A stretch of 64,000 bases of DNA from Fictibacillus arsenicus. GTDB taxonomy: Bacteria > Bacillota > Bacilli > Bacillales > Fictibacillaceae. Shown piece by piece: positions 25,427 to 63,462 of the stretch. The notes below the pieces were generated by a model, which worked only from the letters and a program-made list of their open reading frames with translations, had not been told where the DNA came from and did no database searches. Within the stretch, counting starts at the first letter, position 1; every line of letters begins with the position of its first letter. The position numbers and the translations under genes were made by a program. The stretch covers positions 2,976,001 through 3,040,000 of the forward strand of contig NZ_CP016761.1 in the NCBI RefSeq assembly GCF_001642935.1, in the 5' to 3' direction.

Positions 25427-25644
25427 GGCTTTATCCATGATCTCCTGTCCTTTGTTTATGAAATTTCACGGTACGTGTTCTTATATTTATTACACGTTCG
25501 CTCAGATTCATTGAGTTTCGCTCAAAAACGCCGACTTACGCTCAAGATCCTCTCGTTTCGCTCAAAATACCTCTAGTTTCGCTCCAAAACTTCCTTTTTC
25601 GCTCAAAGCGCCTCTTCTAATAGCAGCATTTTACAAAAACAGCC
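25427..25644. repeat. element with header I and TTTCGCTCA 20-21 nt array
   Basis: The left end GGCTTTATCCATGATC and right end CATTTTACAAAAACAGCC resemble the ends of the MITE-like copies. Inside are the header ACGGTACGTG...ACACGTTCGC (25468-25501) and six units starting TTTCGCTCA or a near variant, spaced 20-21 nt, up to about 25618. The text between the motifs is not conserved. Confidence 0.7.
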
Positions 25645-33395: not shown

Positions 33396-33799
33396 GGCTT
33401 TTTATAATCATTGTTTTTTTTACGGTACGTGATCTTTTTACTATTACACGTTCGCCAGATGCGAAAGGGTTTTAACCCAATTGAGTCCTTGTTTCGCCCC
33501 AACAACCGCTCGTTGCACTCCGAAATCCACAAGTTTCACCCGATGACTACTCATCTTCACCCCATAAGTGTTCTTGCAGCTGAAAAAACTCGTTCGCAAG
33601 ACATGCTTATTTGTGTGAGAACACTCGTTGATAAGTTGATTGGAGCGCAAGGTGCGAGACTCCTGCGGGAGCAGCGGGACAGGTGAGACCCCACAGGCGC
33701 TATGCGGCGAGGAGGCTCACCGCACGCCCCGAGGAAAGCGAGCATCCTGGAGCGGAAATCAACCACTTCCGATAGCAACAATGGTTTGCGAAAATAGCC
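33396..33799. repeat. composite element: inverted-repeat ends, header I array and core, copy F
   Basis: Left end GGCTTTTTATAATCATTG and right end ATGGTTTGCGAAAATAGCC are imperfect inverted repeats. From left to right it holds header I (ACGGTACGTG...ACACGTTCGCC, 33422-33455), an array of units exactly 21 nt apart (TTTCGCCCC, TTGCACTCC, TTTCACCCG, CTTCACCCC) and the GC-rich core (GTTGATTGGAGCGCAAGG to GGAGCGGAAATCAACC, about 33635-33765). It joins the two kinds of interior in one element. Confidence 0.7.
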
Positions 33800-39599: not shown

Positions 39600-39823
39600 G
39601 ATACCCCTCAAGGTATTAAAGAGAAAATTCCCACGGTAAATGGAATTAATCGCACGTTAATTAACTTTTTTCTCACGTTAATTGAAATAATCCCACGTTA
39701 ATTAAAAAATAACCACGAGTCGACAAACATGGACAATTTTCGCCACGCGGATACCCCTCCCACAAAAAAAGCTCCGGGGAAAGCAGCCACATCCAATAGC
39801 AACTAAGTTTGCGCAAACAGCCC
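39600..39823. repeat. element with CACGTTAAT 21-nt array (family II) and MITE-type right end
   Basis: Header ATACCCCTCAAGGTATT (39601-39617) is followed by CACGGTAAA and three CACGTTAAT units spaced 21, 21, 21 and 20 nt, then the tail CCACGAGTCGACAAACATGG (39713-39732). A remnant of the GC-rich core (CCGGGGAAAGCAGCCAC) and a right end AAGTTTGCGCAAACAGCC close the element. The left end could not be placed. Confidence 0.65.
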
Positions 39824-46572: not shown

Positions 46573-46733
46573 AGCTGTCTTTTACGGTACGTGTTTTTTT
46601 ATTTATTACACGTTTGCTCATTGTTGGCCGGTTTTCGCTCAAAATATACGATCTTCGCTCAGACTATGCGGATTATCGCTCAAAATTTTCGTTCTACGCT
46701 CAAACAAGGTCTATTTTCGCTCAGACTGTCATT
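46573..46733. repeat. header I plus TTTCGCTCA array between mqnE and dapF
   Basis: Header ACGGTACGTG...ACACGTTTGC (46584-46617) is followed by six units with CGCTCA (TTTCGCTCA, CTTCGCTCA, TATCGCTCA, CTACGCTCA) spaced about 20 nt. It ends 4 nt from the dapF stop. Clear terminal inverted repeats are not seen; AGCTGTCTTTTACGG may be a left-end remnant. Confidence 0.65.
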
Positions 46734-47860: not shown

Positions 47861-47961
47861 GTGATTCATCCTCTATTTGGAAGGTGTGATAATTGCATTA
47901 TCATTCACAATTAACATTTTTTAAAGTATAATAGGTCATGTAACAAAATACAATAGCGATC

Positions 47962-48110
47962 CATCTTCGGGGCAGGGTGAAATTCCCGACCGGCGGTAAT
48001 TGAAGATTCCCTCTTCATCAGCCCGTGAGCGGAAAAATTCAGCAATGAATTTTTCATGCTGATCTGGTGTAACTCCAGAGCCGACAGTATAGTCTGGATG
48101 GGAGAAGATG
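47962..48110 (+). ncRNA. FMN riboswitch (RFN element)
   Basis: All signature blocks are present: ATCTTCGGGGCAGGGTGAAA, TTCCCGACCGGCGGTAAT, AGCCCGTGAGC, GATCTGGTGTAACTCCAGA, GCCGACAGTATAGTCTGG and closing GGGAGAAGAT. It should bind FMN and lower ribU expression when FMN is plentiful. A terminator lies between it and ribU. Confidence 0.96.
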
Positions 48111-48213
48111 TTGGTACAGCGGTTCATTTTATAAAATTGAACCCTTTGTTTAAGTACGCATTTTAAACTCTAAAATGCTTCTTTCTCATGCTGTTCTTCA
48201 TACACTAACTCCC

Positions 48214-52136: not shown

Positions 52137-52151
52137 TTCGTACTTAAATTA

Positions 52152-52285
52152 TTTACGGTACGTGTTTTTATTTTTATTACACGTTCACGCAAGAATGATA
52201 AAGTTTCACGCGAACGAGTCCTCCTTTCACGCCAAACACCTTCTGTTTCACTCAGTAACCCCATCTTTTCGCGCTCCATGACGGT
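52152..52285. repeat. header I plus TTTCACGC 21-nt array
   Basis: Header ACGGTACGTG...ACACGTTCACGC is followed by TTTCACGCG, TTTCACGCC, TTTCACTCA and TTTTCGCGC, spaced exactly 21 nt. The array lies between the terminators at 52100 and 52343. It codes in one frame on the minus strand but has no ribosome site, so I treat it as a repeat. Confidence 0.65.
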
Positions 52286-63246: not shown

Positions 63247-63300
63247 CCTTTTATTTTGCTTGATCTCGTAGTAGTTTCAGTTAAAAAACTGCCCCTTAAG

Positions 63301-63462
63301 AAATACCTCACCAGGTATTGGAGCAAGAATTCCCGTGGTAAATCGTATTAATCCCACGTTAGCCAGTATTTTTCTCACGTTAAATTAGATAATCGCACGT
63401 TATTTGTAAAATAACCACGAGTCGACACACATGGACAAATTTCGCAACTCACATACCCCTAT
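63301..63462. repeat. family II element with CACGTTA array
   Basis: Header AATACCTCACCAGGTATTGG is followed by CCGTGGTAAA and three CACGTTA units spaced 21, 21, 20 and 20 nt, then the tail CCACGAGTCGACACACATGG and GACAAATTTCGC. It is collinear with the copy at 39600. It lies between two terminators. Confidence 0.65.

What the first reader, a model, noticed from the sequence alone, without database searches (positions are those of the whole stretch)
25427..25644. Phased 20-21 nt arrays with a locus-specific key word (family I)
Four loci (25.5, 33.4, 46.6, 52.2 kb) share the header ACGGTACGTG...ACACGTT and then units that start with a short word (TTTCGCTCA, or TTTCACGC at 52.2 kb) at a fixed 20-21 nt step, while the rest of each unit is free. 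The step is two DNA turns, or seven codons. It is not a CRISPR: the repeated part is only 8-9 nt. A phased protein-binding platform, a structured RNA, or a recombination device are all possible. I know no description.
Basis: partly seen in the sequence, partly recalled or inferred. Interest (0 to 1): 0.82.

Follow-up and report, generated by a model that had tools for sequence, protein, structure and literature searches.

The report
Helically phased short-word DNA arrays
Scattered between genes of this Fictibacillus-type bacterium are about 55 copies of a 150-letter DNA element, a fixed header followed by about six two-turn units, whose pattern suggests DNA built to be bent or wrapped around a protein, and whose repeated word is often swapped as a set between related species.

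Summary
The 10-mer ACGGTACGTG occurs 65 times in the 4.06-Mb genome; 55 copies are elements: a conserved ~31-nt header, then an array that spans six units in 41 of 55, stepping 20 or 21 nt. Letter autocorrelation at lags 20-21 is 0.42 against 0.26 in shuffles. The header pattern is in 16 of 18 Fictibacillus genomes and 0 of 23 others searched.

New here: (1) the stretch between words is not free: G/C-rich and A/T-rich blocks alternate once per helical turn (period 10.25 nt, z 38, against 8 at 20.5). (2) Units of one locus mostly share one key; at orthologous loci the header stays while the whole array, with its key, is often different. (3) Elements lie at gene 3' ends, mostly beyond terminators, and are oriented with replication in 45 of 55. 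(4) Arrays of the same step with the same or other words occur in other Bacillales.

Best reading: double-stranded DNA shaped to be bent or wrapped by an oligomeric protein (gyrase, RemA or Lrp type; unidentified). Structured RNA, CRISPR, REP/RAYT and coding are not supported. Function is inferred; there are no binding data.

The parts
25464..25498 (+). Element 1 header TTTC-ACGGTACGTG...ACACGTT (imperfect dyad ACGTGT / ACACGT)
25497..25605 (+). Element 1 array, six units, key TCA (TTTCGCTCA / TTACGCTCA); member of a subfamily of near-identical copies
33418..33452 (+). Element 2 header
33451..33563 (+). Element 2 array, step 21, key CCC (TTTCGCCC / TTTCACCC with variants)
46580..46614 (+). Element 3 header, between convergent genes, after the terminator of the + gene
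46613..46723 (+). Element 3 array, six units, key TCA; full, shortened or missing in relatives
52151..52185 (+). Element 4 header
52184..52276 (+). Element 4 array, key GCA (TTTCACGC), five recognised words; not found at this site in the six relatives examined, one of which keeps a header remnant

Best explanation
Each element is a double-stranded DNA module of about 150 bp, a header plus about twelve helical turns, in which a G/C-rich block and an A/T-rich block alternate once per turn, so that the DNA is bent or easily wrapped in one direction. I infer that an oligomeric DNA-wrapping protein binds it, reading the word (TTTCRC plus key) every second turn and taking the A/T blocks where the minor groove faces the protein; the header dyad would be the entry or anchoring site. 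Placed behind terminators at gene 3' ends, the module would act as a local topological or architectural site, for example where positive supercoils pushed ahead of RNA polymerase or of the replication fork are met. Candidate wrappers are DNA gyrase, a RemA-type ring and an Lrp-type octamer. Shown: the copies, the phasing, the composition alternation, the positions, the orientation bias and the array differences between species. Inferred: that a protein wraps it, which protein, and what for.
For: Power of the G/C indicator over the 118 nt after the header in 55 arrays: z 38.1 at 10.25 nt, 7.8 at 20.5 (dinucleotide shuffles). By key over the loci held: TCA z 56 at 10.25 (n 92), CCC 29 at 10.5 (n 16), GCA 33 at 10.5 (n 18), CACC-NN-TAAA 23 at 10.5 (n 23), all with mononucleotide shuffles. 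So the alternation is kept while the letters change. Predicted bend 79 degrees against 42 in shuffles, z 12 (wedge table recalled). A word-blind scan of the window for this alternation ranks elements 3 and 1 first and second and element 2 sixth; peaks 3 and 11 are a second family with another word, which itself gives z 32 at 10.25 (n 20). A headerless array of another word in G007, at the site orthologous to element 4, gives z 11.5 at 10.25 and about 0 at 20.5. In 15 of 17 arrays from other genera the best z at 10-10.5 is 4.7 or more, in 11 of 17 above that at 20-21. Elements lie beyond terminators in 20 of 28 and 28 of 43 cases tested, 0 in shuffles. Precedents: E. coli gyrase has a 130-bp motif of phased G/C variation (PMC6379681, passages); RemA of Bacillales forms octameric rings proposed to wrap DNA over poorly conserved repeats with 7-bp protected and 3-bp unprotected stretches (PMC8481266, passages); two RemA-like genes are in 18 of 18 Fictibacillus genomes.
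Against: Wrapping alone does not explain why the word letters are almost fixed (C, R-C and T-C positions 91-99%) and why all units of a locus tend to share a key. Any 20-21-nt repeat has some power at half its step, so part of the signal is harmonic; the argument rests on the half-step outweighing the step. The word-blind scan is not specific: of its 15 best peaks 5 are arrays, and element 4 is not among them (top 0.6% of positions). The CATAAA arrays of the same genome are 20-21-periodic in 9 of 9, as are 4 of the 17 from other genera with larger power at 20. Steps of 20 nt give 10.0 bp per turn, and step variations are not compensated along the array, which speaks against strict facial alignment. 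The sense strand has more C than G in 55 of 55 arrays, which double-stranded wrapping does not need. The gyrase cleavage consensus is no better met in the header than in 25% of random 44-mers (496 of 2000). RemA-like genes are also present in G007 and G017, which lack family I. No binding or expression data exist.
Confidence: 0.48

Rival explanations
1. A non-autonomous mobile or self-copying repeat without host function: a header that is its recognition site and an array copied as a module; the phasing is inherited from an ancestral tandem repeat.
For: Near-identical copies at many loci (35 of 55 arrays have a paralogue at 0.75 identity or more); presence and absence between species, shortened arrays and a header remnant; different array at the same site with retained header; orientation with replication in 45 of 55, as known to me for elements that move through lagging-strand DNA; 2 inverted cases.
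Against: Words and half-unit G/C blocks persist while the letters between them diverge, across all four key groups, which decay of a tandem repeat would not give; no transposase was tied to the header: the shared Y1 transposase has other palindromes around it and no full header in 12 of 12 loci, and a reverse transcriptase is in only 4 of 18 genomes; no target duplication or terminal repeat was seen in the loci read.
Confidence: 0.22
2. A Rho-dependent termination zone acting at the RNA level: the transcript of the sense strand is C-rich, G-poor and has YC words at even steps, and would stop antisense transcription from entering the 3' end of the gene at the array end.
For: Sense-strand C exceeds G in 55 of 55 arrays (median ratio 2.0; flanks 1.07, 31 of 55); C/G is 1.94 in the middle of the units; the gene at the array end faces the element in 45 of 55.
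Against: Outside the words C/G is only 1.38 (TCA), 1.30 (CCC), 1.12 (GCA) and 1.17 (CACC class), near the flanks; sense RNA is not notably unstructured against shuffles; a helical-turn period is not expected of an RNA signal; many elements already sit between intrinsic terminators; orientation follows replication also in 5 of 8 regions between tandem lagging-strand genes (tallied by hand).
Confidence: 0.15
3. An array of sites for a set of paralogous sequence-specific regulators, one per key, with phasing only placing the sites on one face of the DNA.
For: Key triplets agree within arrays in 0.69 of comparisons against 0.45 when unit positions are shuffled among arrays (129 arrays). The word CGCTCA recurs in 20-21-nt arrays of other genera: 635 hits in 25 genomes outside Fictibacillus against 57 in 16 genomes for the reversed string (tallied by hand).
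Against: The key at one locus differs between species while the flanking genes stay; no paralogue set was looked for or identified; within Fictibacillus four key groups share one header.
Confidence: 0.1

Closest known systems
Strong gyrase sites and the E. coli gyrase motif (Mu SGS, BIME-2)
   Same: About 130-bp DNA with phased G/C content; extragenic BIME-2 elements hold gyrase sites; gyrase gathers downstream of transcription units (PMC6379681, passages)
   Different: The known motif has two 47-bp periodic arms around a 36-bp centre and is degenerate; here the array is one-sided behind a fixed header and made of near-fixed words; gyrase binding untested; in E. coli downstream regions do not score higher for the motif (same paper)
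RemA binding regions of Bacillus subtilis
   Same: Bacillales; a 107-159-bp region with at least six 7-bp protected stretches spaced by 3 bp, weakly conserved AT-rich direct repeats, proposed wrapping around an octameric ring (PMC8481266, passages)
   Different: Known sites lie upstream of activated promoters; here the elements lie at gene 3' ends and have strongly conserved words and a header; binding untested
REP elements with RAYT transposases (GTAG and CGTC REPs)
   Same: Small, extragenic, dispersed in tens of copies; a Y1 transposase is in 18 of 18 genomes (G003 and G009 have extra matches)
   Different: No full header near that gene in 12 of 12 loci read (one 7-nt partial string); it is flanked by GGGGACAGTCCCC-type palindromes; REPs are 20-40-bp palindromes (PMC3733652, abstract and passages)
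Plasmid iterons and parC-type partition arrays (recalled)
   Same: Direct repeats of about two helical turns read by a protein
   Different: Those are near-identical repeats at one locus beside their own gene; here 55 chromosomal copies with units that share only a word
STAR and other small interspersed repeats of Firmicutes (recalled)
   Same: Short conserved words with variable spacers between genes
   Different: No header with fixed two-turn step and locus-specific key is known to me

Membership tests
CRISPR array | Repeats of about 20 nt or more separated by spacers of similar length | tested here: not met
   Shared word about 9 nt, step 20-21 nt
Strong gyrase site | Phased G/C variation over about 130 bp | tested here: met
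   z 38 at 10.25 nt over 118 nt in 55 arrays; the published matrix itself was not available to score
Strong gyrase site | Cleavage consensus in the centre | tested here: inconclusive
   Header reaches 10 or 11 of 13 in 42 of 55 copies, but 496 of 2000 random 44-mers do as well; consensus recalled
Strong gyrase site | Gyrase binding or cleavage in vivo or in vitro | not testable with these tools
   Needs Topo-Seq or EMSA
RemA-bound region | RemA present in the organism | tested here: met
   Two RemA-like matches in each of 18 of 18 genomes, also in those without family I
RemA-bound region | Footprint by RemA with 10-bp period | not testable with these tools
   Needs footprinting
REP / REPIN with RAYT | Elements flank the RAYT gene | tested here: not met
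   0 full headers in 12 loci of about 6 kb around the Y1 transposase
REP / REPIN with RAYT | Element is a 20-40-bp palindrome | tested here: not met
   Header is an imperfect 6-bp dyad with a 13-nt loop followed by about 110 nt of array
MITE | Terminal inverted repeats and target duplication | tested here: inconclusive
   None seen by eye in the ortholog comparisons of two window loci; not searched systematically
Structured RNA or riboswitch | Match to a known family or folding beyond shuffles | tested here: not met
   Rfam on the window: only an FMN riboswitch elsewhere; mean MFE z +0.25 and +0.22
Rho utilisation site | C-rich, G-poor sense RNA | tested here: inconclusive
   C>G in 55 of 55 arrays, but weak outside words
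Rho utilisation site | Rho-dependent transcript ends | not testable with these tools
   Needs RNA 3'-end mapping
Protein-coding repeat | Step a multiple of three | tested here: not met
   In the TCA class 228 steps are 20 nt and 219 are 21 nt; the 21-nt classes were not examined for frames

The most novel reading that the evidence does not exclude
A genus-wide system of DNA wrap cassettes: one fixed header with exchangeable six-unit arrays, each written in one of several word dialects, exchanged as whole modules at fixed chromosomal slots by a copying process linked to the lagging strand, and read by a wrapping protein whose word preference shifts between lineages; the same design with other headers and words recurs across Bacillales.
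Probability: 0.3. Interest if true: 0.9.

Novelty: new variant of a known kind. Interest (0 to 1): 0.7.

Why it matters
If the module is a natural wrapping site, it is a sequence-encoded set of architectural or topological sites in a Gram-positive genome, ready for ChIP or Topo-Seq, and would show how such sites are placed at gene ends. Array and word replacement behind a retained header is an unusual way for a non-coding element to evolve and makes the copying mechanism a testable question. Because the design recurs with different words, repeat finders that look for sequence identity can miss it, whereas a scan for helical G/C phasing recovered three of four family I elements and two copies of another family among its 15 best peaks in this window.

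Tried and rejected
RAYT as mobiliser: the Y1 transposase is in 18 of 18 genomes, also in those without elements, and has other palindromes around it. Retron-like origin: RVT_1 matches in 4 of 18 genomes. Gyrase cleavage consensus in the header: not above chance. Family I in phages: 11 stretches of viral contigs match the header pattern; 7 were read and none has an array; the 90 CGCTCA-triple stretches were not read. Records outside Fictibacillus in the genome-contig scan: 31 of the 120 stretches by hand count of the listing, each with one match, taken as chance; three were read (L095, L074, L105) and none has an array. Compensation between 20- and 21-nt steps was looked for and not found. The first class split missed the CACC class through a faulty pattern and was redone. 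Literature: the eight answered searches listed nothing whose title or shown abstract describes these arrays; the library holds open-licence papers only, and four papers were opened in passages (of PMC8481266 also the outline with abstract), so absence from print is not shown.

Rows dropped: 10 of 65 exact 10-mers (two header fragments joined to other sequence, five ACGGTACGTGAAAT, three without the rest of the header). In one search, 129 of 173 parsed elements passed the word-score threshold; the 44 left out were printed, and 23 loci of the CACC class were analysed. In one search, six of 44 ortholog pairs have array identity below 0.3 because the array is short or my extraction clipped it, so '20 switched, 24 same' is approximate. 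One search used 17 replaced and 16 similar pairs chosen by hand; in some of the similar pairs the immediate flanks are not alike (for example up25 0.04 and 0.08), so their likeness may come from separate copies of one subfamily rather than descent. Terminators were tested in 28 of 29 and 43 of 45 cases, those with a region of suitable length, against five mononucleotide shuffles each. Gene calls are simple ORF picks, not an annotation. Header conservation counted is partly built in, because headers were found with a pattern that fixes CGGTACGT and a short list of second halves.

Full report
What is there. The window is G000:C1:2976001-3040000 of a single-contig genome of 4,055,461 bp. ACGGTACGTG occurs 65 times (32 +, 33 -) against 3 for the string read backwards. 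After dropping 10 matches without the rest of the header, 55 elements remain. The usual form is TTTT-ACGGTACGTGTTCTTWTATTTATTACACGTTCGCTCA.

Phasing. Letter autocorrelation over 55 arrays is 0.422 at lag 20 and 0.417 at lag 21 (shuffled 0.26, z about 24) and 0.413 at lag 41. The span from first to last recognised word is six units in 41 of 55; the others span 1 to 5 units in 13 and 9 in one. In the 129 elements that passed the parser (of 173), the CCC and GCA classes step 21 nt (42 of 45 and 85 of 95 steps) and the TCA class is split (228 of 20 nt, 219 of 21 nt); in the TCA class TAC goes with 20-nt steps (119 against 7) and TTC more with 21 (199 against 76). A frame of seven codons is thus excluded for the main class.

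The key. The unit core is TTTCRC followed by a 3-4-nt key. Key triplets agree between units of one array in 0.69 of comparisons against 0.45 when unit positions are shuffled among arrays; in G000 alone 0.68 against 0.44 (50 arrays). Arrays with mixed keys exist (for example L135). Key groups seen: TCA, GCA, CCC, and CACC-NN-TAAA in loci of several other Fictibacillus genomes.

The stretch between words. The indicator of G or C over the 118 nt after the header peaks at period 10.25 nt, z 38.1, against 7.8 at 20.5 (dinucleotide shuffles). By class over the loci held, with mononucleotide shuffles: TCA z 56 at 10.25, CCC 29 at 10.5, GCA 33 at 10.5, CACC 23 at 10.5. Within the unit the word (positions 3-7) and a block at about positions 13-17 are G/C-rich with A/T between. 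Predicted bend is 79 degrees against 42 in shuffles (wedge table recalled). A scan of the window for this property that ignores words (12,777 positions) ranks element 3 and element 1 first and second and element 2 sixth among separate peaks; element 4 lies in the top 0.6% of positions but not among the 15 best peaks, and 10 of those 15 are not arrays. The scan also gave two copies of a second family with the word CACGTTA (39.6 and 63.3 kb). That family has 21 word pairs in G000 and occurs in 7 of 13 Fictibacillus genomes searched and 0 of 8 others; G007 and G010, with no and one family I header, have it. It shows z 32 at 10.25 and 13.5 at 20.5 (20 loci). By eye, the family I header holds the CACGT of that word on both strands, about 19 nt apart.

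Distribution. The header pattern is in 16 of 18 Fictibacillus genomes (none in G007 and G017, one in G010) and in 0 of 23 others. Triple CGCTCA arrays at this spacing are in 15 of 18 Fictibacillus and 0 of 16 other members of the family; in a few genomes the reversed-string control is not small (G013 17 against 21, G016 22 against 71, G001 5 against 6, G003 5 against 7). In the order they are in 33 of 299 genomes and 19 of 116 genera; outside Fictibacillus that is 635 hits in 25 genomes against 57 in 16 for the control (hand tally). Of 17 arrays from other genera analysed, 15 have z 4.7 or more at 10-10.5 nt, in 11 of the 17 above the value at 20-21; L298 and L299 have none, and I take these two for chance matches, unchecked. 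The CATAAA arrays of G000 (65 triples, control 0) are dominated by 20-21 nt in 9 of 9. So helical alternation is common in the wider class but not universal.

Position. Around the 55 elements the neighbouring genes, in element orientation, are (-,-) 23, (+,-) 22, (+,+) 7 and (-,+) 3, so the gene at the array end faces the element in 45. Intrinsic terminators separate gene and element in 20 of 28 (header side) and 28 of 43 (array side) cases tested, 0 in shuffles. dnaA is at 4.04 Mb; GC skew in the stretches held is positive in 8 of 9 bins up to 2.25 Mb and negative in 7 of 7 beyond. Elements are - in 24 of 29 on the first arm and + in 21 of 26 on the second, that is 45 of 55 with the sense strand on the lagging side. 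Tallied by hand this holds for convergent genes (17 of 22), tandem leading-strand genes (20 of 22), tandem lagging-strand genes (5 of 8) and divergent genes (3 of 3); no formal test was made. Family II shows no such bias (7 of 12 by hand), and CATAAA arrays sit in the other sense relative to the nearer gene (upstream gene + in 9 of 10).

Comparison between species. At orthologous loci the arrays are either similar (identity 0.77-0.95 in 16 hand-picked pairs) or unlike, often with another key, between flanks that are 75-95% identical (44 pairs with a header, 24 same class and 20 switched, approximate; 2 inverted; 13 further sites without a recognised header). Examples read: 3749247 against BK138 (L143; flanks 95%, header identical with its unusual loop, TCA against GCA), 3517077 and 3515876 against L086, 3509233 against L153, 984118 against L077, 245925 against L161. 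For 17 replaced pairs the 25 nt before the header and the 100 nt after the array are more alike (0.59, 0.57) than between unrelated elements (0.42, 0.27) while the arrays are not (0.53 against 0.53); in the 16 similar pairs these values are 0.56, 0.69 and 0.85, so the upstream flank does not separate the two groups. At 46.6 kb other genomes show the full array (G009), two units (G014), a decayed header with one unit (G006) or nothing (G012, G007, G010); at 52.2 kb G014 keeps a header remnant, G007 has a headerless array of another word, and G006, G009, G012 and G010 have no element. A subfamily of near-identical copies, to which element 1 belongs, points to recent spread.

Interpretation. Alternation of G/C and A/T blocks once per turn over about 120 bp, with G and C interchangeable at the half-unit, in DNA mostly outside transcripts, is what one expects of DNA to be bent around a protein and is not needed by an RNA. 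E. coli gyrase has a 130-bp motif of phased G/C variation with a 36-bp centre and 47-bp arms (PMC6379681, passages; PMC12393610, passages), and RemA of Bacillales forms octameric rings proposed to wrap DNA (PMC8481266, passages); an Lrp-type octamer is compared with it there. I cannot choose between these and an unknown protein. The near-fixed word letters, the shared key and the C excess of the sense strand are not explained by wrapping alone; I take them as sequence-specific reading added to it, or as marks of how arrays are copied. A functionless mobile repeat and a Rho-dependent zone remain possible.

Noticed in passing
window 39600-39768 and 63300-63460: A second dispersed family of like design: word CACGTTA at 20-21 nt, its own header (AGGTATT...ATTCCC..GGTAAAT) and a conserved tail (AACCACGAGTCGACA..CATGGACAA..TTTCGC); 21 word pairs in the genome.
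   Followed up: partly
G000:C1:3051710-3052055, 374493-374638, 781275-781440, 3854731-3854856: CATAAA arrays that are nearly perfect 20-nt tandem repeats, up to about 17 units; they may show how phased arrays are born.
   Followed up: partly
window 33630-33770, and after several elements (e.g. L009, L024): A G/C-rich dispersed repeat (GAGACTCCTGCGGGAGC...GAGCGGAAATCAACCAC) often lies beside elements; at L024 and L041 a header fragment runs straight into other sequence.
   Followed up: no
L038, L039, L040 and L045, around 1.9-2.6 Mb of G000: Five copies of ACGGTACGTGAAAT without an array, all in the terminus half, - at the two lower and + at the three higher positions; a terminus-related site is conceivable.
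   Followed up: no
L346-L357 (Y1 transposase loci): A Y1 transposase flanked by GGGGACAGTCCCC-type palindromes in the loci read (GGGGTACGGTACC in G017): looks like a RAYT/REP pair of Fictibacillus.
   Followed up: partly
G006 small contigs C5-C8 (e.g. L121, L132, L137, L147): Family I elements also lie on small contigs of 44-60 kb, perhaps plasmids, and look dense there; not counted.
   Followed up: no
window 47959-48113: FMN riboswitch (Rfam RF00050, 119.5 bits).
   Followed up: no
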